In this document: in pieces, positions 3,989 to 36,379 of the stretch
How positions within the stretch are numbered: the stretch's first letter is position 1
Layout: each line of letters starts with the position of its first letter
NCBI GenBank assembly: GCA_021648725.1
Contig: JAKISF010000004.1
Location: 1 to 64,000, forward strand
DNA: 64,000 nucleotides
Direction: 5' to 3'
Source: Bacteroidales bacterium
GTDB taxonomy: Bacteria; Bacteroidota; Bacteroidia; Bacteroidales; JAADGE01
The notes under the pieces: model-generated
Databases searched by the model: none
Seen by the model: the letters and a program-made list of their open reading frames with translations, nothing else
Told to the model about the DNA's origin: nothing
Translations under genes and position numbers: made by a program

Positions 3989-5869
3989 ATGAAACAAAGT
4001 CAAAAAAGCAATAATAAAACTTGCTGTAAAGAAAATAAATTAAAAATTCTATTAGATTTATCTGAAGAAATTATTATTGAACTCGACTCTGACGGAAATA
4101 TTATTCTTGCAAATAAAAAAGCTTGCAAACTTTTAGGGAGTAAAGAAAACGAGATAATAGGGAAAAACTGGTTTGACAACTTCATTCCTGAAAAAACAAA
4201 AAACGAAATATTACCTGCCTTCAAAAAATTATTTAACGGAAAAATAGATAATATTGATTTTTATAAAAATCCTGTTTTAACAAAAACAGGTGAAGAAAGA
4301 TTAATTTTATGGCATAACACAACAACTAAAAATAAAAAAGGTAAAATCATATCTCTTTTAAGTGCAGGAAATGACATAACAGAACATAAAAAAACAAAAA
4401 AAGACCTTAAAGAAAGTGAAGAAAAATATAAAAATATTATTGACAATCTTATAGATATTTATTATCGAGCCGACCAATTCGGAAATCTAACAATGCTCAG
4501 TCCCTCGGGGCTTAAAATATTCGGTTACAAAAACCTCGATGAAGTAATAGGGCGTTCGCTCAATATTTTGTATAAAACAGAAGACGAACGAAATAAATTT
4601 GTCTCTTTGCTTAAAAAATTCGGCAAAGTAGAAAACTACCGTACAATGCTGACAAGTGAAAACGGAAAAGAAATTTATGTTGAAACTACCGCCAATATAA
4701 TATTGAACGACAAAGGGAATTATATAGGTGTTGAAGGCATAGTAAGAGATATTACCGAAAGAAAAAAAGCGGAAATGTTTTATCAAAAAACCGTAAATTC
4801 ATTAAGTGAGCCTTTACACATAATAGATAAAGATTATAAAATAATTTTTGCAAATGCAGCATTTTTTAAACTCTTAAAAAGTCTTAGCCTCTCAACAGAT
4901 ATCATAGGTAAAAAAGTATATAAAGCTTTTGATCTTCCTTTTGAAAGAGTAATAAAAGAATACAAAAAAGTTTTTAAGACAGGTAAAGAGCTTAAAGTAC
5001 AAGAAGTTACAAGAATAGGAACTAATACTATACATACAAAAACAACAAAAACTCCCATTACTGAGAACGGCAAAGTAGATAAGATAATTACAAGCTTTGT
5101 TGATATTACCGAAAGAAAAAAAGCTGAAGATAAACTCATTTCAGCAAAAGAAAGAGCAGAAGAAAGCGACAGGTTAAAAACCGAGTTTATAAATAATATG
5201 TCGCACGAAATCAGAACTCCGATGAACGGAATAATTGGCTTCTCACAACTTCTCGACAATCCTGATCTGTCATACCAAAAATTAAAAAACTACATCAACA
5301 TTATTCAAAACAGCGGAAAACAATTAATGCGTATTATTGATGATATACTTGAAATTTCAAAACTCGGAACAAAACAAGTAAAAACAAATGAATCAAAAAT
5401 TTGTTTAAACGATTTATTGTTAGAACTGTTTTCTATTTTCAGTATTAAAGCCAAAGAAATCAAAATTCCGTTATATTTCAAAAAAGGACTTCCCGACAAA
5501 GAAAGTTTCATTATAACCGATGACTCTAAATTAAGTAAAATTCTTAGTAATTTGCTTGAAAATGCTTTAAAATTTACAAATGAAGGTTATATTGAGTTCG
5601 GCTACTCCTTAAACCACAATCAAATTCAAATTTTTGTAAAAGATACCGGAATAGGAATTGACTCTGAAAAACAAGAACAAATTTTTGAACGTTTTTCGCA
5701 AGAAGAAGAAACTATTTCAAAACAAGCGGGAGGCTTAGGCTTAGGCTTATCCATTGCAAAAGAAAATGCCGAATTAATAGGAGGCAAAATTACGCTGACA
5801 TCCGAAAAAGGCAAAGGTTCAACTTTTTATTTAACTATACCTTATAAAACTGAATTTATAAAAAACTAA
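3989..5869 (+). CDS. PAS sensor histidine kinase, paralogue of its neighbour
   Basis: Histidine kinase of 626 residues with three PAS units starting near residues 20, 147 and 265, HisKA with His406 in [11 protein letters not shown], and HATPase_c with N box around Asn525 and G box GLGLGLSIAKENAE. There is no receiver domain and no membrane segment. Its ATG directly follows the stop codon of the upstream hybrid kinase with no gap, which implies one operon. The kinase core is nearly the same as that of the upstream gene: both contain NYI-IIQNSG and QLMRIIDDILEISKLGTKQ, so this looks like a tandem duplication followed by changes in the sensor part. Lacking a receiver, it may pass phosphate to the neighbour's receiver or to a partner elsewhere. 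It ends 7 bp from a convergent gene. Confidence 0.9.
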   Translation: MKQSQKSNNKTCCKENKLKILLDLSEEIIIELDSDGNIILANKKACKLLGSKENEIIGKNWFDNFIPEKTKNEILPAFKKLFNGKIDNIDFYKNPVLTKTGEERLILWHNTTTKNKKGKIISLLSAGNDITEHKKTKKDLKESEEKYKNIIDNLIDIYYRADQFGNLTMLSPSGLKIFGYKNLDEVIGRSLNILYKTEDERNKFVSLLKKFGKVENYRTMLTSENGKEIYVETTANIILNDKGNYIGVEGIVRDITERKKAEMFYQKTVNSLSEPLHIIDKDYKIIFANAAFFKLLKSLSLSTDIIGKKVYKAFDLPFERVIKEYKKVFKTGKELKVQEVTRIGTNTIHTKTTKTPITENGKVDKIITSFVDITERKKAEDKLISAKERAEESDRLKTEFINNMSHEIRTPMNGIIGFSQLLDNPDLSYQKLKNYINIIQNSGKQLMRIIDDILEISKLGTKQVKTNESKICLNDLLLELFSIFSIKAKEIKIPLYFKKGLPDKESFIITDDSKLSKILSNLLENALKFTNEGYIEFGYSLNHNQIQIFVKDTGIGIDSEKQEQIFERFSQEEETISKQAGGLGLGLSIAKENAELIGGKITLTSEKGKGSTFYLTIPYKTEFIKN

Positions 5870-28511: not shown

Positions 28512-29027
28512 TTAAACAACAGGGTCACCGCAAAAATCTCTGCGACCGCAAATTTTACAAAATTTCCCTATCCAAACTTCGTCAAATTGCATCATAATTT
28601 CGTCAATAAAATCAGGATTTGTCGTTATTATTCCGGCTTCGAAATTTCTGCGATTTTCGCTTTTCATTCCGAGCCCTGCTCCGGTAAGATTTGCCGAACC
28701 GGTATAAGCAAATTTCCCGTCTATAATTATGTGCTTAAAATGAACGCGCGGACAAAGTTGCCGTTCCATCAGGTCCCACAGTCGCGGATATTTATCAAAA
28801 CTTTTGCGAAAATTTATACCGGGTTCTTTTGCATGAAGTAATCTGATTGCAACATTCTTTTTTATAAGTTCGTTTAAAACCGACAAAAACGAAACAAGGC
28901 TTCCTTTGTGTTTTACGTGCAGGTCTTTTATGTCGGCAGTTCCTATCCAAACAAATTTTCGTGCTTTTGCAATTTCCAAGATTACTTCTTCGTAGTGTTG
29001 CCGGTTTGTTATAAATTTTGTGCTCAC
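28512..29027 (-). CDS. Phospholipase D-family nuclease with Cys-rich tail
   Basis: A 171-residue single-HKD protein. The motif is complete: His96, Lys98 and Asp103 in HFKHIIIDGK, followed by TGSANLTGAG. One HKD per chain means it would work as a dimer, like the Nuc endonucleases. A short tail with CKICGRRDFCGDP near residues 157-169 could bind a metal. The start is GTG 29027. It begins the block of nuclease and ATPase genes at 28.5-34.4 kb but lacks the shared promoter box; two ggttataac repeats (29051 and 29083) lie just upstream instead. Role could be DNA processing or defence. Confidence 0.82.
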   Translation of the reverse strand: MSTKFITNRQHYEEVILEIAKARKFVWIGTADIKDLHVKHKGSLVSFLSVLNELIKKNVAIRLLHAKEPGINFRKSFDKYPRLWDLMERQLCPRVHFKHIIIDGKFAYTGSANLTGAGLGMKSENRRNFEAGIITTNPDFIDEIMMQFDEVWIGKFCKICGRRDFCGDPVV

Positions 29028-29050: not shown

Positions 29051-29091
29051 GGTTATAACAAAGAAAAAAGGCAATAATATTGGGTTATAAC
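29051..29091. repeat. Two direct copies of ggttataac
   Basis: The 9-mer ggttataac occurs at 29051-29059 and 29083-29091, upstream of the PLD-family gene and overlapping the 3' end of the small basic protein gene. It could be a regulatory repeat, or chance in AT-rich sequence. Confidence 0.35.
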
Positions 29092-29270
29092 GTAAAATTA
29101 TTACCTTTTCCCAAAATTCTGCTTATTTTTTCGAGATATTTTCGTTCTGTTTTTCTGTATTTTGCCGCTTTGTCGAAGTTATTTTTTTTTCTGTATTTTG
29201 TTTTTTTTGCTTTGAATTTTTCGGCTTTTGATTTAAAGTAAAGTAATTTTATTCGGTTTAATGTGTTCAT
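29085..29270 (-). CDS. Small basic protein of unknown function
   Basis: A 61-residue, strongly basic, helical protein with 16 Lys and many aromatic residues (MNTLNRIKLLYFKSKAEKF at the start). By sequence alone it would be doubtful, but a promoter identical in architecture to those of four neighbours lies at 29300-29336, with a 29-bp leader. That supports it being a real gene. It could be an RNA-binding or coiled-coil accessory protein. Confidence 0.5.
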   Translation of the reverse strand: MNTLNRIKLLYFKSKAEKFKAKKTKYRKKNNFDKAAKYRKTERKYLEKISRILGKGNNFTL

Positions 29271-29299: not shown

Positions 29300-29336
29300 C
29301 AAAATTAAACTTTGCCGAAGCCGGAAGGTGTCGCTG
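29300..29336 (-). promoter_or_regulatory. Shared-box promoter of the small basic gene
   Basis: Minus-strand reading: box CAGCGACACCTTCCGGC (29320-29336), exactly 12 bp, then -7 box TAATTTTG (29300-29307). It is one of five promoters in this region with the same layout. Confidence 0.7.
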
Positions 29337-29358
29337 TAAAGAATTATTTAAAAAACTC

Positions 29359-29381
29359 TGCCGAAGTTTTGGGCTTCGGCA
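29359..29381 (-). terminator. Intrinsic terminator after the AAA ATPase gene
   Basis: The stem tgccgaag (29359-29366) pairs with cttcggca (29374-29381) around a 7-nt loop. The minus strand has a T-run right after it. It lies 18 bp past the stop of the AAA ATPase gene. Confidence 0.78.
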
Positions 29382-29398
29382 AAGTTTGAGTTTTATTT

Positions 29399-31069
29399 TT
29401 ATTTAAACCCTATTTGAGCTGTATCTTTATTTGATAATTTTTCAGTTTCGCAAAATTCAGTAATTTTAGTTAAAGACGGTAATCTGCCGTTTAATACTTC
29501 ATACATGTTTATTTTTCTTACTATATTATCAATTTGACCTCCTGTTAAATCAAACTTTGTATTTAAAAGGTCATATTCTTCTTTTGTCAGACCCTTTAGC
29601 TTCGATTTCCAAATCTTTAATTTTGTATCGTTATCAGGCTTTTTAAATTCAATTTTAAAAAGAAATCTTCTTTCAAAAGCAGAATCAAAATTTTCGGGTA
29701 AATTTGTAGTGGCAATAAAAATACCTTCAAAAGTTTCCAATTCTTGTAATATTATATTTTGTATTGTATTTTCAGTTTGAACAGTATTTCCTATCGAGTT
29801 ATTTTGCCGTTTTGATATAATTGCATCGGCTTCATTGAAAAGCAAAACAGGTATTTTCTTACTTTCTTTTAACAGTTCTTTGTATTCGGTAAATATTTCT
29901 TTCATTTTCTTCTCGCTTTGACCGAACCACATTGATTTTGTGTTACTTATATCAACTTGCATAATTTCTCTGCCCGTTTTTTTTGCCGACTGATATACGG
30001 TTTCCGTCTTTCCAGTTCCGGGTGCACCGAAAAACAAAACGGTTATTCCTGTCGGCAAGTTTTTACTTTTTAACCGCCTTTTTATTTTACTCATATTTTT
30101 ATTTTCCAAAATATTATTCAACATTTCAATATGTTCTTTTTCATTTTGATTATAAAATAATTGTTTTTCGGGTATTTTCCTCGGTTTTATGATGTATTCT
30201 TTTTCAATTTTAGGAGTGTAAAGCTCTATATTGTGTTTTTTTATAATTTTTATTGCATTATCAGATAATTCAACCTTTGCGTAATCCATGTAATCTTCTC
30301 CTTCAATTTTAATTAATTTAAGCTTTATCAGTTCGTGGTTTTTACCTATTATCTTTTGTATTTCTTTTATTCTTTCTAATGGATCGTCATATATAACTTC
30401 AAAAGTTTTGGATAAATAAACATTTTCATTTCCATTAAGTTTTTTCCAAATAAGATATAATACAATAAACTTATCATATATTTTTAAAGGTTGAGAGTCA
30501 AGCCATTTTATAAGAGGGTGTTCCAAATTGTTATTAATTACTTTTAAAATTTTATGTCTTAACAAAAAAAGATTTATTTCGTTATTTTCTTTTTTCTTAC
30601 CTATATCATAAATATAATTTAAAAGTTTATATATGTCATCAAATTTGTTATTATTTAATACAGGTAAAGGTTTTGAGTTTAAAAGTGCTTCCGGTATAGT
30701 TTCATTAATATAATATTGATAATTCGAACGTTTAAGTGCACTTCTATATCTTGAACTTTCAATTTTAAAATATCCTTTTTCGGTAAGGAAGTCAAAATCT
30801 TTACTCATATACAATAATTGTACGGGACTACATTTAAAATATTTTATCAAATTAGTGAAATCAACAGTTGTGCCTTTGTAGTTCTTTGAGAATACAACCG
30901 AATATAAAAATGCTTGACTTTTATTTATTTTTAAATATTCGGCAATCAGTTGCAATTCCGTATCAACTGAATTAAAAAAACTTTCTTCCAGTTTGCATTT
31001 TTTAGATTTTTCGTAAATCGTATTAATGCCTTGTAAAACTTTGTTTTTTATTTTAACACTTATTTTCAT
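29399..31069 (-). CDS. AAA-family ATPase with unusual Walker B
   Basis: A 556-residue protein. The C-terminal half is a AAA module: Walker A FFGAPGTGKTE near residues 344-354, Walker B written LLFNEADAI near 410 with Asn in place of the usual Asp, sensor 1 ATTNLPENFD and arginine finger FERRFLFKI. The N-terminal 320 residues are helical and unrecognised; they may bind the substrate or partner. Such single-AAA proteins remodel proteins or nucleic-acid complexes and occur in several defence systems. It has a shared-box promoter at 31090-31126 and its own terminator, so it is a single-gene unit in the regulon. Confidence 0.85.
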   Translation of the reverse strand: MKISVKIKNKVLQGINTIYEKSKKCKLEESFFNSVDTELQLIAEYLKINKSQAFLYSVVFSKNYKGTTVDFTNLIKYFKCSPVQLLYMSKDFDFLTEKGYFKIESSRYRSALKRSNYQYYINETIPEALLNSKPLPVLNNNKFDDIYKLLNYIYDIGKKKENNEINLFLLRHKILKVINNNLEHPLIKWLDSQPLKIYDKFIVLYLIWKKLNGNENVYLSKTFEVIYDDPLERIKEIQKIIGKNHELIKLKLIKIEGEDYMDYAKVELSDNAIKIIKKHNIELYTPKIEKEYIIKPRKIPEKQLFYNQNEKEHIEMLNNILENKNMSKIKRRLKSKNLPTGITVLFFGAPGTGKTETVYQSAKKTGREIMQVDISNTKSMWFGQSEKKMKEIFTEYKELLKESKKIPVLLFNEADAIISKRQNNSIGNTVQTENTIQNIILQELETFEGIFIATTNLPENFDSAFERRFLFKIEFKKPDNDTKLKIWKSKLKGLTKEEYDLLNTKFDLTGGQIDNIVRKINMYEVLNGRLPSLTKITEFCETEKLSNKDTAQIGFK

Positions 31070-31089
31070 CGTAATTTTATTTTATGATG

Positions 31090-31126
31090 TAAAAATAAGC
31101 ATAGTCTCTGCCGGAATATGTCGTTA
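31090..31126 (-). promoter_or_regulatory. Shared-box promoter of the AAA ATPase gene
   Basis: Minus strand: box TAACGACATATTCCGGC (31110-31126), 12 bp, then -7 box TATTTTTA (31090-31097), 20 bp before the ATG. This copy of the box is the closest to the consensus. Confidence 0.75.
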
Positions 31127-31195
31127 ATAAATTACGCTAAAAAAAATTATCGAAGTTTTAAACACCGGCAAAGCTTCGGTTTGGGAAACACAACT

Positions 31196-31429
31196 TTATT
31201 TCCCTGCATTTGCAATTGTTACCTTTCGTATTGTTTTAAGTTCCGATTTTGTATTGAATTGTTCGACCATACTCCCGAGCAGGAATAAATCAACAATCCA
31301 ACCGATACCTGCGAGTTGTAATGTCAGTAAATAAATTATTCCGCTTCCGTATTTGCCGAGATAAAATCTGTGAGTGGAAAAAATTCCGAGAAAAAACCAC
31401 ACTAAATAAGCAATTGTTTTTGACTTCAT
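31196..31429 (-). CDS. TM2-domain small membrane protein
   Basis: A 77-residue TM2-family protein: TIAYLVWFFLGIFSTHRFYLG, a turn with KYGSGIIYLL and a second membrane helix ending GWIVDLFLLG. The STHRFYLG and GWIVDLF features are characteristic. It lies in the inner membrane with a short basic tail. It has a shared-box promoter, so it is probably co-regulated with the ATPase and WYL genes. TM2 proteins are not well understood and are often found near stress or defence genes. Confidence 0.88.
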   Translation of the reverse strand: MKSKTIAYLVWFFLGIFSTHRFYLGKYGSGIIYLLTLQLAGIGWIVDLFLLGSMVEQFNTKSELKTIRKVTIANAGK

Positions 31430-31463
31430 AACTTTTGTATTTTTAATTGATAAATATTTTATA

Positions 31464-31500
31464 CAAAATTATGAAGTGCTTATGCCGAAAGGCAGCGTTG
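31464..31500 (-). promoter_or_regulatory. Shared-box promoter of the TM2 gene
   Basis: Minus strand: box CAACGCTGCCTTTCGGC (31484-31500), 12 bp, then -7 box TAATTTTG (31464-31471). This is the most diverged box of the five but has identical spacing. Confidence 0.6.
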
Positions 31501-31570
31501 TGAAAATTTAAAAATATTTTTTTGCTTTTTCTGAAATACCCTAATTTAAGAATTGAGTAATCTGAAAAAT

Positions 31571-32875
31571 TTAATTTGATATTTTTTTTATACTTTCTTG
31601 AAACTCTATTATTATCTCTTTTATTTCTTTCCAAAATTCATCAACTTTTTCTTTTAAATACTTTTCATTTGTCATGTTAAAAACATCTTCTGAATTAAAA
31701 TCTTTAAAATTATGTTTAAACTTTGTATAAATCCATCCGGATAATACATTTTCTTTTCCGGATTGAAACTTCTCGCTATATTCTTTTTTAAACACATCCT
31801 TGAAATATTGCAAATAGTCAGAAAAGTCATTTTTTTCATCATGGTCTTCTTTTCCTTCTTTATTGACAATTGCTATAGATAATGTCGGATATTTGTATAT
31901 GTTTACTATATTTAGTTTTATATAGTGTTTATCATCAATTTTATTAATAATAAGACTAATTCCTTGATAGAAGTATTTTTCACCACCGGAAGTGTAAAAT
32001 CTTTTTATATTTTCACCAGTTATATTAGTCTCATTAATTTTTAAAATGATATTTTGGTTATCATGCATAAACTCTTCAATTTTTTCTTTTAAACTTATCC
32101 AAAATCTTTTTTGAAGTTCAATTTTAGCATCCAAAATTACTTGGTTGATTTTTACTGCACTCTTTAAATTATCCGCATCTTTCAATATTAACTCAACCAT
32201 TTCTTTATTCATAGTTTTATTCATAGTTTGCCCTGTTAAATATTTAATGATGTTAATATATTGTGTAATTGTTTCTCTTAAACCGGGAAAATTTACCGCT
32301 TCTTTTTTACATTTTTCAAGCCATTTTTTTATATCATCAGAATATGATAATAATTTTACATTTTCTTTTTTAAAAGAACCGTTTCCTATTGAATAAACAG
32401 AAGGCTCTTCACCATATAGTGTTAAATAATATATATATGCATCAGGAGCATAATTATAATATCTTAACAACTGATTTTCTTGATCTTCTGCATATATTTT
32501 ATTTTCAATAATAATCTTTTTACCTTCATTACCTTTAATAATAATATCTATTCTGCCTCCTTCCGTATAATCTTCATTAATTGCACCTATATATTTTTCA
32601 GCTTCGGCAACTGCATTTTCCGTATTAAAGTTTTCTATTTTAAATTGCTCAATAAAAAGTTTCAAAAAAACATCTCCTTGTCCGTGCATTCCTTTTGGGT
32701 TAAGTAATTCTGCAATAAATGCAGAATGCAAATTAACTTCATCAGATTGCATATTCATAACCTGAAAGATATTAAAATTTTCACCGGTTATTTTTGCAAT
32801 TTCTTCATATTTTTTACTTATTGCCGATACTTTTTGCAATAAGTTTTTAATGTTTTGTATTTGTTCTTTTTCCAT
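31571..32875 (-). CDS. PD-(D/E)XK nuclease family protein
   Basis: A 434-residue protein whose N-terminal part fits the PDDEXK_4 group: LLNPKGMHGQGDVFLKLFI near residues 57-75, then the catalytic pattern GRIDIIIKG (about 105-113) followed by KKIIIENKIYAEDQENQLLRYY (about 117-138), giving the D-(E)xK set with trailing Gln. The rest is an unrecognised C-terminal region. Predicted cytoplasmic nuclease. It lies 15 bp downstream of the WYL gene, so the two form an operon. Such WYL-nuclease pairs are seen in defence islands, though here that is inference. Confidence 0.85.
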   Translation of the reverse strand: MEKEQIQNIKNLLQKVSAISKKYEEIAKITGENFNIFQVMNMQSDEVNLHSAFIAELLNPKGMHGQGDVFLKLFIEQFKIENFNTENAVAEAEKYIGAINEDYTEGGRIDIIIKGNEGKKIIIENKIYAEDQENQLLRYYNYAPDAYIYYLTLYGEEPSVYSIGNGSFKKENVKLLSYSDDIKKWLEKCKKEAVNFPGLRETITQYINIIKYLTGQTMNKTMNKEMVELILKDADNLKSAVKINQVILDAKIELQKRFWISLKEKIEEFMHDNQNIILKINETNITGENIKRFYTSGGEKYFYQGISLIINKIDDKHYIKLNIVNIYKYPTLSIAIVNKEGKEDHDEKNDFSDYLQYFKDVFKKEYSEKFQSGKENVLSGWIYTKFKHNFKDFNSEDVFNMTNEKYLKEKVDEFWKEIKEIIIEFQESIKKISN

Positions 32876-32890
32876 ATTTTAATTATTAAT

Positions 32891-33781
32891 TTAGTATTCA
32901 TCAATTGCCTTCAAAAACTCATTTTTTATCTTATCTCTCAAAAAATCCGGCTTTAAAACTTTCATACTACTTCCGAAAGATAATAATTTTTGCTTGAAAT
33001 CGAAAGTGATATGGAGTTTCAGTTTTATAACGAGTTCATCTTCGGTATTTTTTATAATTTCTTGACTGCCGTGCAAAGGCAGAGACTTTATATAATTACC
33101 TTGGAAAGCATCGAAAGATAAAATCACTTCTTCAAAAGGTGTTGTTTCATCTGTTATAATACCGTAAAAATTTTTAAAATATTCGGTTAGATTAAAATTC
33201 CGTTCTTTAAATTTAGATTTTAAAATTTCATAATGAATAATTCTATCGAAAGAAAAAGTTCTTAATTCGGCGGCAGGCATTTTTCGGGCAATTAAATACC
33301 AACGTTTTTCAAATTCTTTTAAAGCAAGAGGTTCAAGCCGGTATTCCGTATGTTCTTTTTCATAAAATTTTTGATACCACAATTTTATAAGGTTTTGATT
33401 TTTAACGGCTTCGGCAATATCATAAAACATTCCCCGTTTTCCGAAATTATTTTTTTCCAAACTTATAAATTCCGAAAAATTATCGTAAAGTTGCAAAGAG
33501 GCGGACAAAGTGAAAGCATCGGATAAAATTTTTGCCGATTCGCTCATTTCGTTTTCATTAATAAAATAAACTTTTTCGGAACGGTCGTATTTTATTTCAA
33601 TACCGAAAATATTCTCAATATCATTTTTATCTCTTTGAAAAGTTCTTAAAGAATAGTTAAATTCGTATCCGAGCATTTCGAATTTATCTGTAAGAAACTG
33701 CTCAATTTCTTCATAAATTGCTTTAACTCTTTGAAGTTTTTCAATTATAAACTGATACCGAAGAAAGTATTTTGATTTCAT
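32891..33781 (-). CDS. WYL-domain transcriptional regulator
   Basis: A 296-residue protein with a helical N-terminal DNA-binding region (SLRTFQRDKNDIENIFGIEI near residues 45-64, DeoR or HTH_11 like) and a WYL domain (IKLWYQKFYEKEHTEYRLEPLALKEFEKRWYLIARK, about 132-167), then a WCX-like C-terminal part. WYL regulators bind nucleic-acid ligands or DNA breaks and often control defence genes. The ATG at 33781 is preferred over the TTG at 33799. The promoter at 33957-33993 contains the region's only perfect inverted-repeat form of the shared box, which suggests autoregulation. A long 170-bp leader separates promoter and gene. Confidence 0.88.
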   Translation of the reverse strand: MKSKYFLRYQFIIEKLQRVKAIYEEIEQFLTDKFEMLGYEFNYSLRTFQRDKNDIENIFGIEIKYDRSEKVYFINENEMSESAKILSDAFTLSASLQLYDNFSEFISLEKNNFGKRGMFYDIAEAVKNQNLIKLWYQKFYEKEHTEYRLEPLALKEFEKRWYLIARKMPAAELRTFSFDRIIHYEILKSKFKERNFNLTEYFKNFYGIITDETTPFEEVILSFDAFQGNYIKSLPLHGSQEIIKNTEDELVIKLKLHITFDFKQKLLSFGSSMKVLKPDFLRDKIKNEFLKAIDEY

Positions 33782-33785
33782 GTAT

Positions 33786-33905
33786 CTAAAATTTTGCAAT
33801 TAATATTGTGCAAGTTGAACACTGTTCGTTATTTATTATATTTGTGTTGCTCTGCACATAGGAACACATAATTTGTATGCAAGTAATTGTGATTCTGTTA
33901 GTCAT
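33786..33905 (-). CDS. Possible 39-codon leader ORF before the WYL gene
   Basis: From ATG 33903-33905 the minus strand is open for 39 codons (MTNRITITCIQIM at the start, four Cys in all) and stops at 33786-33788, only 4 bp before the WYL start codon. It fills nearly all of the unusually long leader after the promoter at 33957. It could be a leader peptide coupled to WYL translation, or a chance reading frame in AT-rich DNA; nothing in its sequence decides this. Confidence 0.25.
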   Translation of the reverse strand: MTNRITITCIQIMCSYVQSNTNIINNEQCSTCTILIAKF

Positions 33906-33956
33906 GCTTCTTTGTGTTAAACTTGTTTATTACGGGTGTTTAATATTTTGTTTTTT

Positions 33957-33993
33957 CAAAGATACGAAAATATAACGACAAAATATGTCGTTA
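33957..33993 (-). promoter_or_regulatory. Shared-box promoter of the WYL-nuclease operon, with operator
   Basis: Minus strand: box TAACGACATATTTTGTC (33977-33993), 12 bp, then -7 box TATCTTTG (33957-33964). The box is part of a perfect 9-bp inverted repeat, ataacgaca at 33972-33980 and tgtcgttat at 33986-33994, with a 5-bp centre. A dimeric regulator would fit such a site. Confidence 0.72.
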
Positions 33994-34046
33994 TATCAAA
34001 ATTAATTGCAAATCTTTAATGAAACTTCGGCAAAGTATAGGTACTC

Positions 34047-34331
34047 TTATTTTTGTTCGTAAATAATTCCTTTTTCGGTTAGTTTTCTGAATAAAGGTTC
34101 TTCTTTCATTGCAAGTTTCTCATAACGACTTGCATTATTATATCTTCTGAGTAAGTTATCAATATCTTTTTGCAAGATAATTGTATTACTGAATGTCAGA
34201 TTGTTTTTCGGGAATACCATTAATGATTCCGGCACATAATGAAAAGGTAATGTTGCACCGATAACGAAAATAAAAAATACAATCCATCCTTTTCCTTTTC
34301 TTCTTTTTGTTTTGTTGTTTTGATTTGTCAT
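34047..34331 (-). CDS. Small single-pass membrane protein
   Basis: A 94-residue protein with a very basic N-terminus (NKTKRRKGKG) followed by one membrane helix (WIVFFIFVIGATLPFHYV, about residues 17-34) and a hydrophilic C-terminal part (LLRRYNNASRYEKLAMKEE). The basic stretch before the helix fits an inside-facing N-terminus. No family recognised. A shared-box promoter lies 27 bp upstream, so it belongs to the same regulon as the AAA, TM2 and WYL genes. Confidence 0.65.
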   Translation of the reverse strand: MTNQNNKTKRRKGKGWIVFFIFVIGATLPFHYVPESLMVFPKNNLTFSNTIILQKDIDNLLRRYNNASRYEKLAMKEEPLFRKLTEKGIIYEQK

Positions 34332-34357
34332 AGCTGTTTGTTTTTATTTATTTTCAA

Positions 34358-34394
34358 CAAAAATATAGTTCGAGAAAGCCAAAATATGTCGTAA
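34358..34394 (-). promoter_or_regulatory. Shared-box promoter of the small membrane protein
   Basis: Minus strand: box TTACGACATATTTTGGC (34378-34394), 12 bp, then -7 box TATTTTTG (34358-34365). Confidence 0.72.
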
Positions 34395-34565
34395 CGAATA
34401 TTAATTAAGAACTTTTCCGAAAAGTAGCAACAACAGAAATTTGAAGTTTATATTTTTATTATTTGTTTAAAATATTTTTTGTTTTTTTCTGTTTACAAAA
34501 TATATGTAACGAAATAAGCAATTCAATTTTAACAAAACATAAGTTTTTTGTTTTGCAGGATTTAT

Positions 34566-34573
34566 TACTTTTG
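34566..34573 (+). promoter_or_regulatory. Probable -7 box of the T9SS cargo gene
   Basis: The sequence tacttttg matches TAnnTTTG, with a TTG at 34548-34550 at the usual -33 distance. It lies 15 bp before the GTG start, leaving almost no leader. Confidence 0.5.
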
Positions 34574-34588
34574 CATAAATTTTACGGT

Positions 34589-36379
34589 GTGAAAAAACAT
34601 TTAATTTTAACATTCATTTTATTTCCGCTTTTCAGTTTTTCTCAATTAGATATCTCAATTACAAGTAATATTGTTCCGATATATCCTTCTGATGGTGACA
34701 CACTTAGTGCTTGCAGAGATTCTCTCATAATTTTTGAAGCAATAGTTACCGACGGCGGAAGCCCTGTTACGGGAGCCGAATATTTTTGGGATTTTGACAA
34801 CGGCATAAAACCTTTCGGGACTGATGTTGACTCTGTTACTTATATTTTTTCGGAAGGCGGAGGTTACAGAATTAAATTAAAGGTTACAAAAGGTGCAAAT
34901 GAGGGATTTGCAATTTTACCTTTGAAAGTAGCAATGAGACCGAATTATGAAGGAACAAAAGTAAATTTACCCGAGGAACAAGACGGCATTTGTATAAGCA
35001 GTACAGCACCCATAACAGGAAAAGCATATCCTGAACTTTGGGAAGATGGGCCTGTTTATGAAATAATTGAAAACCCTTATGATTTTTTTGAATTTAACGA
35101 CGGTTATACATCTGTTTTAAACTTTGATGAATTCGGTTTAGATTCAGTTTATAAAAGCGGATACATTGATTCGATAGGAATAAACATTTTACATGCCGAT
35201 ATGGGCGATTTGCAAATTAAACTTTTGTGCGAAAACGGAAATTCGGTTATTTTAAAAGATTATGCACCTGCAAATCATGCACTTCTCGGAGATACTGTGT
35301 TAAATGAAGCTTATTTTTATTATTGGTCTCAGGTTTCAGGAACAGCAACAATGAACAGCAATACAACAGATGCTATAATTCCTTCAAGTTCATATTTGCC
35401 CGATGAAAGTTTTGATAATTTAATCGGATGTTCGTTAAACGGAGATTGGACTATTGAAATTGATGATAACCAAGAACTTGACAGTGGGTTTATTTTTTCG
35501 TGGAATATTGTTTTCAGAAAAGATATTTTACCTGATGTTTGGAAATTCAAAGATACTTTGGTTCAATATAATATAGTTAATAATATTTTGTACGGAACAT
35601 ATTGGTCGGGGAATAACATAAATGCAAGCTCAGTAATTACATCGGGTGATACAATAATTTCAAATTCGTCAGCTTCCCCGGATTCTTACGGAACAAAAAA
35701 ATATAATTACCATGTTATTACAAATTGGGGATGTCCGCAAGATACATTTATAAACCTTTTAGTTGAAGAAGTTGTTATTGATGCAGCCTCAACGGTTCAA
35801 GAAAATGACACTATAGTTTTTACGGATAAAACAAGTTGGGCATTTGAAAGAGATTGGGACTTCGGAGATAAAGAAACTGCCTACAGAACAACTGACACAG
35901 TTTCTCACAAATATATTGAAAAAGGAGAATATGAAGTTATACTGTATGCAACAGATAAGAACGGATGTACAGATACTGATACCGTAACAATTGAAGTAAC
36001 GGTTGAACCTTCAAAATTAAGTAATATACCGAATATGTTCAGCCCGGACAGCAATGACGAAATAAATAAAACATTTAAGATACCGAAGGAAAGCTTAGCC
36101 GGAATGGAAGAATTTCAAATGACAATTTATAACAGATGGGGAGACAGAGTTTACCACACAAACAGCATGGATGAAATTATTAATGAAGGATGGGACGGTA
36201 AAAACTTGTTAGGTATAAAAGCATCACCGGGGGTTTATTTTTATGTAATAAAAGCAACAGGTAAAGACGGAATAATATATAAAGGTGTGAGAAACCCGGA
36301 CAAAATAAAAAAAGTTGATAATAATGACGAAACCATAATTTCAACTGAAACTACGGGAACAATTCATTTATTCAGGTAA
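34589..36379 (+). CDS. T9SS-secreted PKD/P-domain protein with gliding-type C-terminus
   Basis: A 596-residue surface or secreted protein. I start it at GTG 34589, which gives a clean signal peptide KKHLILTFILFPLFSFSQ; the TTG at 34463 leads to non-signal sequence. Domains in order: a PKD-like domain (AEYFWDFDNGIKPFG), a P-proprotein convertase-type jelly roll (DMGDLQIKLLCENGN to SFIFSW-like end, with GDWTIEIDD), a second PKD (RDWDFGDKETAYRTT) and a type-B C-terminal domain (NMFSPDSNDEINKTF, YNRWGDRVYHT, SPGVYFYVI, ending TIHLFR). The last domain targets it to type IX secretion. It may be an adhesin. Confidence 0.85.
   Translation: MKKHLILTFILFPLFSFSQLDISITSNIVPIYPSDGDTLSACRDSLIIFEAIVTDGGSPVTGAEYFWDFDNGIKPFGTDVDSVTYIFSEGGGYRIKLKVTKGANEGFAILPLKVAMRPNYEGTKVNLPEEQDGICISSTAPITGKAYPELWEDGPVYEIIENPYDFFEFNDGYTSVLNFDEFGLDSVYKSGYIDSIGINILHADMGDLQIKLLCENGNSVILKDYAPANHALLGDTVLNEAYFYYWSQVSGTATMNSNTTDAIIPSSSYLPDESFDNLIGCSLNGDWTIEIDDNQELDSGFIFSWNIVFRKDILPDVWKFKDTLVQYNIVNNILYGTYWSGNNINASSVITSGDTIISNSSASPDSYGTKKYNYHVITNWGCPQDTFINLLVEEVVIDAASTVQENDTIVFTDKTSWAFERDWDFGDKETAYRTTDTVSHKYIEKGEYEVILYATDKNGCTDTDTVTIEVTVEPSKLSNIPNMFSPDSNDEINKTFKIPKESLAGMEEFQMTIYNRWGDRVYHTNSMDEIINEGWDGKNLLGIKASPGVYFYVIKATGKDGIIYKGVRNPDKIKKVDNNDETIISTETTGTIHLFR

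What the first reader, a model, noticed from the sequence alone, without database searches (positions are those of the whole stretch)
29300..34394. Five promoters sharing one box-spacer-box architecture define a candidate regulon of ATPase, TM2, WYL-nuclease and two small-protein genes
On the minus strand five starts are preceded by a 17-bp box near tAACGACATATTCCGGC, exactly 12 bp, then TAnnTTTG (29300-29336, 31090-31126, 31464-31500, 33957-33993, 34358-34394). The spacing is the same in all five while the spacer sequences differ, so this is not simple recent duplication. The box sits where the -33 element should be. Target genes encode a small basic protein, a AAA ATPase, a TM2 protein, a WYL regulator with a PD-(D/E)XK nuclease, and a small membrane protein. 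WYL regulators often control defence operons. This could be an undescribed multi-unit defence or stress system under one regulator, or a regulon of an alternative sigma factor. The shared layout is seen in the sequence; regulation and function are inferred.
Basis: partly seen in the sequence, partly recalled or inferred. Interest (0 to 1): 0.85.

Follow-up and report, generated by a model that had tools for sequence, protein, structure and literature searches.

The report
One-switch cluster of defence-like gene promoters
In an unnamed Bacteroidota bacterium, five neighbouring promoters, one of them that of a WYL-domain regulator gene, share one conserved signal that matches the target of a known DNA-damage activator from a distant phylum, suggesting that one alarm protein switches on an exchangeable set of probable anti-phage genes.

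Summary
The five promoters are real: AACGACATATTYYGGC, exactly 12 bp, TAnnTTTG (one -7 ends in A, one box is diverged). Genome-wide the composite pattern (up to 3 mismatches) has 5 hits, 4 in this 5 kb. A matrix trained on the genus finds it within about 1.5 kb of 13 of 26 WYL genes of other families, 0 of 26 reversed controls. Between orthologous promoters box and -7 are conserved; spacer and flanks are not. At the WYL gene the box is a perfect dyad, ACGAC-N7-GTCGT, the consensus core of the Caulobacter activator DriD. Order-wide, 11 of 24 such dyads lie 12 nt before TAnnTTTG. WYL-gene promoters keep GTC (10 of 10 outside the genus); other genes mostly have GGC (19 of 29). None of the five has a -33 TTG. 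Best reading: a DriD/PafBC-like activator of a modular, probably defensive gene set; the AAA-WYL pair is conserved across the order. Not shown: binding, sign, ligand, defence. Against: one of two arginines implicated in relatives is missing, 13 of 26 WYL loci lack the site, and four AAA-WYL plasmid loci lack the box.

The parts
33970..33996 (-). operator dyad ATATAACGACA-N5-TGTCGTTATAT (core ACGAC-N7-GTCGT) of the promoter of the WYL and nuclease genes
   Evidence: read; same core as the DriD consensus ATACGAC-N7-GTCGTAT
33957..33964 (-). -7 element TATCTTTG of the WYL promoter, 12 bp below GTC
34378..34393 (-). box TACGACATATTTTGGC of the SMP promoter (-7 at 34358-34365)
31484..31499 (-). diverged box AACGCTGCCTTTCGGC of the TM2 promoter (-7 at 31464-31471)
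   Evidence: TM2 promoters of G012 and G006 keep the layout
31110..31125 (-). box AACGACATATTCCGGC of the AAA promoter (-7 TATTTTTA at 31090-31097)
   Evidence: 94% box identity with the G012 orthologue
29320..29335 (-). box AGCGACACCTTCCGGC of the SBP promoter (-7 at 29300-29307)
32891..33781 (-). wHTH-WYL-WCX regulator, 296 aa: proposed activator of the cluster and of itself
   Evidence: Pfam WYL 1.7e-13, WCX 1.6e-7; closest folds DriD and PafBC
31571..32875 (-). PD-(D/E)XK nuclease, PADLOC candidate PDC-S26, directly behind the WYL gene
   Evidence: Pfam PDDEXK_4 4.4e-39; PDC-S26 3.6e-116
29399..31069 (-). AAA+ ATPase, 556 aa, conserved partner of the WYL gene across the order
   Evidence: Pfam AAA 1.4e-23; co-occurrence and adjacency
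31196..31429 (-). TM2-domain small protein
   Evidence: Pfam TM2 3.4e-19
34047..34331 (-). SMP, 94-aa small protein with one hydrophobic stretch (by eye); clear matches only in this genus
   Evidence: no family
29085..29270 (-). SBP, 61-aa basic protein, no family
   Evidence: homologues in the G012, G002 and G006 clusters
28512..29027 (-). PLD-like protein next to the cluster, with an ordinary-looking TTTG-N19-TATTTTCA promoter and no box: neighbour and contrast, membership uncertain
   Evidence: PLDc_2 7e-15; promoter read

Best explanation
The cluster is a local regulon of the WYL protein encoded in it. A dimer binds the dyad ACGACA-N5-TGTCGT at its own promoter and the half-degenerate ACGACA-N5-TGGC (or CGGC) at the other promoters, centred where the -33 element would be and exactly 12 bp above TAnnTTTG, and activates the housekeeping polymerase there by helping its sigma factor on promoters that lack a -33 element (as DriD and PafBC do). 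The trigger is probably nucleic acid from damage or phage attack. Targets are an exchangeable, mostly defence-like set: AAA ATPase, PDC-S26 nuclease, TM2, SMP and SBP proteins here, other genes in relatives. Shown by sequence: the promoters, their near-confinement, conservation and fixed spacing, the dyad at the WYL gene, the AAA-WYL linkage. Inferred: WYL as the binder, activation rather than repression, the signal, defence.
For: 4 of 5 genome hits of the composite element lie in the cluster. Up to 2 mismatches in 148 relatives: 32 hits in 22 genomes (14 of the 32 in the genus), reversed control 1. Matrix trained on 16 genus promoters: score 12 or more within about 1.5 kb at 13 of 26 WYL loci and 7 of 15 AAA loci outside the genus, all fetched by protein, reversed controls 0 and 0; the two sets share some sites. 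17 orthologous promoter pairs: box 81%, -7 83%, spacer 46%, upstream 35%, downstream 47% identical. Dyad core equals the DriD consensus. GTC-to-TA distance 12 in 11 of 24 order-wide sites, no other value above 2. PafBC's tTGTCRgtg-8-TAnnnT has the same 12 nt. No TTG 15 to 24 nt above TA in any of the five. Outside the genus, WYL-gene promoters GTC 10 of 10, other genes GGC 19, GTC 6, GAC 4 of 29, Fisher 1.3e-5. Foldseek ranks 1 to 15 are all DriD or PafBC chains. Seven genus relatives carry box promoters at the same chromosomal place with other gene contents.
Against: No binding or expression data. In the WYL domain the first of two arginines (RxFR in PafBC, RxWR in DriD) is R or K but the second is S, G or A in all 12 aligned box-associated proteins, so an ssDNA ligand is doubtful. 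13 of 26 WYL loci outside the genus do not reach the score. Order-wide, the dyad-plus-TAnnTTTG pattern with free spacing is not more frequent than its reversed control (30 hits against about 69 by my count of the table): only the spacing is special. Four plasmid loci with AAA and WYL together have no box; four full-length AAA plasmid hits, all Arcobacter or Aliarcobacter, have no WYL match. A box is near only 3 of 12 PDC-S26 loci, the window included. Two genus genomes (G006, G007) have a further hit elsewhere on the chromosome, and some hits lie inside genes. In Chryseobacterium the pattern precedes secreted proteins. WYL model confidence is moderate (pLDDT 72.8, pTM 0.49). BrxR, a repressor, has the same 11-bp arms and 5-bp spacer. 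No background of ordinary promoters was measured for the -33 statement.
Confidence: 0.58

Rival explanations
1. Same regulon, opposite sign: the WYL protein is a repressor like BrxR or CapW that sits over the -33 region and is released by a ligand made during infection.
For: The dyad has the BrxR geometry, 11-bp arms with a 5-bp spacer. BrxR and CapW are repressors of defence genes, and a CapW structure with ssDNA exists (row), so ssDNA sensing does not imply activation. A perfect dyad at the own promoter with weaker sites at targets also suits a repressor.
Against: CapW sites overlap the -10 and the BrxR site lies below the promoter, whereas here the site is above the -7 at one exact spacing, which a blocking repressor does not need; the five promoters lack a -33 TTG; closest folds are the activators.
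Confidence: 0.27
2. A WYL regulon whose products serve stress or envelope functions rather than phage defence.
For: TM2, SMP and SBP have no known defence role; one target elsewhere is recA (L180); Chryseobacterium targets are secreted proteins.
Against: PDC-S26 nuclease behind the WYL gene; targets elsewhere include GmrSD and Cas6, and AAA-WYL neighbours on plasmids include DUF262 pairs, a nuclease and a PLD protein; shuffled gene content.
Confidence: 0.2
3. Recognition by an alternative sigma factor: the box is its -35 element.
For: Fixed spacing to the -7 and position near -33.
Against: At WYL-gene promoters the element is an inverted repeat (GTC in 10 of 10) matching a WYL operator; the -7 is the ordinary TAnnTTTG (consensus recalled); the element tracks WYL genes in other families. 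Presence of sigma genes was not searched.
Confidence: 0.03
4. Recently copied promoter DNA without common regulation.
For: One 36-bp promoter is identical at AAA here and at SBP in G002.
Against: Between 103 non-orthologous promoter pairs box and -7 are 74 and 76% identical while spacer and flanks are 33 to 40%; the signal recurs in other families.
Confidence: 0.03

Closest known systems
DriD of Caulobacter crescentus (WYL activator; PMC12340889, a preprint, passages seen)
   Same: wHTH-WYL-WCX chain; operator core ACGAC-N7-GTCGT; site overlapping the -35 at a constant distance from the -10; poor -35 elements; closest fold
   Different: Other phylum and -7 element (TAnnTTTG); local gene cluster instead of scattered repair genes; half-degenerate sites at most targets; second RxxR arginine absent
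PafBC of mycobacteria (PMC5656591 and PMC11804915, passages seen)
   Same: TTGTC followed after 12 nt by TA; PafBC activates by sigma adaptation; WYL fold
   Different: Heterodimer; published motif is not a dyad; does not bind promoter DNA without polymerase; genome-wide DNA-damage regulon
BrxR of pEFER and Acinetobacter (PMC9122601, passages seen)
   Same: WYL regulator of a defence island with more than one operator; 11-bp arms, 5-bp spacer; a degenerate second site (R-BOX2)
   Different: Repressor, site below the -10; no BREX hit among the seven cluster proteins
CapW of CBASS (PMC9122588, passages seen)
   Same: WYL homodimer, palindromic operator, defence operon
   Different: Operator overlaps the -10; repressor; no CBASS cyclase or effector hit here
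IetAS (PADLOC, NCBIfam)
   Same: AAA domain similarity (IetA 2e-25)
   Different: 82.7 bits against a cut-off of 510; no protease family among the cluster proteins

Membership tests
DriD-type WYL activator | wHTH, WYL and WCX domains in one chain | tested here: met
   WYL and WCX by Pfam; helical N-terminus and an alignment to DriD spanning residues 2-296 (8tpk_B, Z 10.3, rmsd 16.5)
DriD-type WYL activator | operator ACGAC-N7-GTCGT | tested here: met
   perfect at the WYL promoter against the consensus quoted; the other four promoters keep mainly the upstream half
DriD-type WYL activator | operator at one fixed distance above the -10, over the -35 | tested here: met
   12 bp in all five and in 11 of 24 order-wide dyads
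DriD-type WYL activator | RxxR arginine pair aligned with the pair of PafBC and DriD | tested here: not met
   first R or K kept, second S, G or A in 12 of 12; hence 'works like', not 'is'
DriD-type WYL activator | ssDNA-dependent activation of transcription | not testable with these tools
   needs protein and polymerase
BrxR/CapW repressors | operator overlapping or below the -10 | tested here: not met
   site lies 12 bp above the -7; positions for BrxR and CapW
BrxR/CapW repressors | BREX or CBASS genes alongside | tested here: not met
   no BREX or CBASS cyclase/effector model among the hits of seven cluster proteins; the AAA has a domain-level match to TRIP13, 3.8e-13
PDC-S26 | full-length match to the PADLOC model | tested here: met
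   3.6e-116, residues 5-427 of 434; the library gives no cut-off
IetAS | IetA above cut-off and IetS protease | tested here: not met
   82.7 against 510 bits; no protease family among the cluster proteins
DISARM | DrmC above cut-off | tested here: not met
   PLD neighbour 33.3 against 133 bits
Bacteroidetes LexA-like SOS regulon | GGA-N5-TCC or CTAA-N5-TTAG operator | tested here: not met
   the box differs from both motifs given in passages of PMC8565304

The most novel reading that the evidence does not exclude
Bacteroidota carry a DriD-like alarm whose operator travels with cargo genes: each gene arrives or is captured with its own WYL-responsive promoter, so that new defence genes are wired into one alarm on arrival. 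A two-tier operator code separates the regulator (symmetric ACGACA-N5-TGTCGT) from effectors (asymmetric ACGACA-N5-TGGC), giving tight self-control and a steep, polymerase-assisted switch for effectors.
Probability: 0.35. Interest if true: 0.8.

Novelty: new variant of a known kind. Interest (0 to 1): 0.62.

Why it matters
Regulation of defence islands is poorly known. If true, this gives a Bacteroidota promoter class with a readable operator that predicts which neighbouring genes belong to one inducible system, extends sigma-assisting WYL activation to a phylum with an unusual promoter, and marks new candidate defence genes (the AAA-WYL pair, SMP, SBP, TM2) for testing.

Tried and rejected
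Box as ordinary genome promoter: rejected. Alternative sigma: see rivals. LexA-like operator: motifs differ. Phage carriage: AAA and WYL queries found no relative in viral contigs (close relatives only by that tool); the dyad pattern gave 8 viral stretches, not followed. Two recA hits of the dyad scan, recognised by eye: L180 kept (81 bp upstream; its genome has two WYL homologues); L235 dropped, because its site reads by eye as lying inside an opposite-strand frame. The genome of the L192 Cas6 site showed no WYL match at 1e-8. Plasmid AAA-WYL loci: no box, and only one other dyad at that spacing. AAA model: the five models range from 42 to 67 pLDDT and Foldseek's 50 listed rows are generic AAA+ ATPases; no conclusion on its N-terminal half. 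Phylum-wide exact dyad: 3 of 395 genomes, the two besides our own in one genus, so it is rare. In one search, 14 of 88 dyad sites stood directly before a WYL gene; the list was capped. Literature: among the rows shown (15 to 20 each, open-licence library only) I recognised no report of this operator in Bacteroidota.

Rows dropped before counts: six dyad hits of one repeat family in G039. In one search, identical sites were counted once; 12 sites without a gene within 300 bp and 7 AAA sites were left out of the main GTC/GGC test (with AAA added the test gives 1.0e-5). Its loci were partly fetched with a GGC-type pattern, which favours GGC in both classes; its matrix treats G and T alike at that position but penalises A and C; some rows come from related genomes, so Fisher values overstate independence. 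In one search lower thresholds give more controls (score 8: WYL 15 against 1, AAA 10 against 3), and 1 of 24 own-genome loci that had been chosen for weak box matches also scored above 12.
Full report
Observation. The five minus-strand promoters exist at the stated coordinates with one exact spacing. The box is 16 bp, AACGACATATTYYGGC, followed by 12 bp and TAnnTTTG; the AAA -7 ends in A and the TM2 box is diverged. In the window the box has 4 matches (up to 3 mismatches) against 0.39 expected. In the whole genome the box alone is not special (81 matches, reversed control 39), but box, spacing and -7 together are: 5 hits, 4 of them here, control 1.

Genes. On the minus strand from 34331 down: SMP (94 aa), WYL regulator with the PD-(D/E)XK nuclease directly behind it, TM2, AAA ATPase, SBP (61 aa), then a PLD-like protein. 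Pfam gives WYL and WCX, PDDEXK_4, TM2, AAA, PLDc_2. PADLOC gives PDC-S26 for the nuclease at 3.6e-116; the AAA matches IetA only in its C-terminal ATPase part and the PLD is far below the DrmC cut-off. The PLD gene has TTTG-N19-TATTTTCA, an ordinary-looking promoter without box (the Bacteroidota consensus TTTG/TAnnTTTG is recalled). By contrast none of the five box promoters has a TTG 15 to 24 nt above TA; a background of other ordinary promoters was not measured.

Relatives in the genus. Of 14 genus genomes searched (own included), 8 have the composite element with up to 2 mismatches; two of them, G006 and G007, also have one hit elsewhere on the chromosome (L098, L100). Regions read from G012, G007, G013, G002, G008, G006 and G011 lie at the same chromosomal place, beside the gene at 34463-36379 and its neighbours, beside UvrD, or both. 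Contents differ: G012 has WYL, a 230-aa gene, SMP, AAA, TM2 and an SBP homologue, with boxes before WYL, SMP, AAA and TM2; G007 has SMP and WYL with nuclease; G013 has WYL, PLD, a gene with a partial PDC-S26 match and a DnaB_C-like ATPase with its own box. G008 keeps one box promoter, most like that of the G013 WYL gene, but only remnants of SMP and of the WYL gene, read by eye. In G002 the 36 bp that drive AAA in the window stand before SBP, and no close WYL was found in that genome. Across 17 orthologous promoter pairs the box is 81% and the -7 83% identical, the spacer 46%, upstream 35%, downstream 47%; across 103 non-orthologous pairs 74, 76, 33, 36 and 40%. I read this as selection on box, -7 and distance.

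Order. A matrix trained only on 16 genus promoters was run on loci fetched by protein similarity, about 1.5 kb to each side: 13 of 26 WYL loci and 7 of 15 AAA loci outside the genus score 12 or more, 0 and 0 in reversed sequence; the two sets overlap in some sites, and at lower thresholds the controls rise. Not every such site is directly before the WYL gene. The AAA protein is in 16 of 148 relatives; 15 of these also have a WYL homologue, against 41 of the 132 others (Fisher 1.4e-6); a WYL gene lies within about 1.5 kb of the AAA gene in 9 of 15 loci outside the genus. SMP is found in six genus genomes (own included) plus two marginal hits elsewhere (8 of 148); five of the six SMP loci have a box nearby, the sixth, on a short stretch of 1656 bases, has none. 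The nuclease occurs in 12 of 148 genomes, with a box nearby in 3, the window included, so it looks like exchangeable cargo.

Operator. At the WYL promoter the box is the centre of ATATAACGACA-TATTT-TGTCGTTATAT. [quoted passage not shown] The PafBC motif tTGTCRgtg-8-TAnnnT (PMC5656591, passage) has the same 12 nt between TGTC and TA. In 393 order genomes the dyad followed within 30 bp by TAnnTTTG gives 30 hits; the reversed pattern gives more (about 69 by my count of the table), so the total is no evidence. The spacing is: without six copies of one repeat, 11 of 24 hits have exactly 12 nt from GTC to TA (two of the 11 are the window and G012) and no other value exceeds 2. Downstream half-sites differ by gene class outside the genus: 10 of 10 WYL-gene promoters have GTC; 29 other-gene promoters have GGC 19, GTC 6, GAC 4 (Fisher 1.3e-5); seven AAA promoters have GTC 5, GGC 1, GAC 1. 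In the genus 3 of 4 WYL promoters have GTC (G013 has GGC) against none of the 12 other-gene promoters listed (11 GGC, one GGT; one search tested it with 11, p 0.009); the G002 site at 5761, GTC, has no gene assigned and is left out.

Targets elsewhere include GmrSD-like genes (G101, L125), Cas6 (L121, L192), a peptidase-M41-like AAA protein and a DnaB_C-like ATPase (L107), AAA homologues (L144, L158, L164, L195), and recA once convincingly, recognised by eye (L180). In Chryseobacterium, two of three targets scanned have a Por_Secre_tail domain (L163, L167; not L202) and 17 targets, L163 among them, begin alike by eye, so the pattern is not only a defence mark. The exact dyad is rare phylum-wide: 3 of 395 genomes. 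On named plasmids, 15 records match the AAA, 8 of them over at least 80% of its length. Four of the eight are Bacteroidota and have a WYL gene 0.3 to 6 kb away (Chryseobacterium balustinum, where the AAA is annotated as two frames; Segatella copri; S. hominis; Prevotella sp. E2-28), with DUF262 pairs, exonucleases, a PD-(D/E)XK nuclease or a PLD protein nearby in some, but without this box. The other four are Arcobacter or Aliarcobacter, without a WYL match.

Regulator. The WYL model (pLDDT 72.8, pTM 0.49) has its best 15 Foldseek rows in DriD and PafBC chains, then CapW and BrxR; VIA-align 2 gives DriD Z 11.0, rmsd 8.7 over 153 residues, with unrelated wHTH and Hfq-like rows at about 8 to 9. 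TM-scores are low (0.30 or less by query length in those rows), so this shows family, not mode. The arginine pair of PafBC (RNFR) and DriD (RSWR) is RTFS here; in the other 11 the first place is R or K and the second G or A. SiwR work (PMC10693628, passages) ties its R204 and R207 to activation; that these are the same positions is my alignment. So 'works like DriD' is favoured by operator and geometry, while the ligand may differ.

Mechanism and limits. Exact spacing, missing -33 and the DriD-like site favour an activator that helps the sigma factor; a repressor remains possible because BrxR has the same arm and spacer lengths (PMC9122601, passages), although BrxR and CapW sites lie at or below the -10. 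Binding, sign of regulation, signal and protection against phage are all untested.

Noticed in passing
L163-L242 (Chryseobacterium records, e.g. L163, L167, L196, L211): The exact ACGAC-N7-GTCGT-N10-TAnnTTTG promoter stands before many look-alike secreted proteins, and before a conserved 306-aa WYL gene: a possible second, genome-wide WYL regulon.
   Followed up: partly
window 29310, 29384, 31173, 34035: CTTTGCCGAAG-like sequences, some as inverted repeats, between the units; one overlaps the SBP promoter spacer.
   Followed up: no
window 33782-33956: The window's WYL gene has a leader of about 175 bp with a short frame starting MTNRITIT; in G012 and G007 the -7 lies about 15 bp before the start codon.
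   Followed up: no
window 29399-31069: The Walker B stretch of the AAA ATPase reads LLFNEAD, with N where D is usual (recalled), invariant in the three aligned homologues.
   Followed up: no
L101 9300-10176 (G008): Natural relic: one box promoter kept, SMP and WYL genes reduced to fragments, an unrelated ATPase gene downstream.
   Followed up: partly
L142, L157, L159-L162 (G039): Six near-identical copies of a repeat carrying ACGAC-N7-GTCGT with a longer distance to TAnnTTTG.
   Followed up: no
L340 (Segatella hominis plasmid NZ_CP137560.1): AAA, PD-(D/E)XK nuclease, WYL and PLD-like genes in one stretch as in the window, but without the box.
   Followed up: partly
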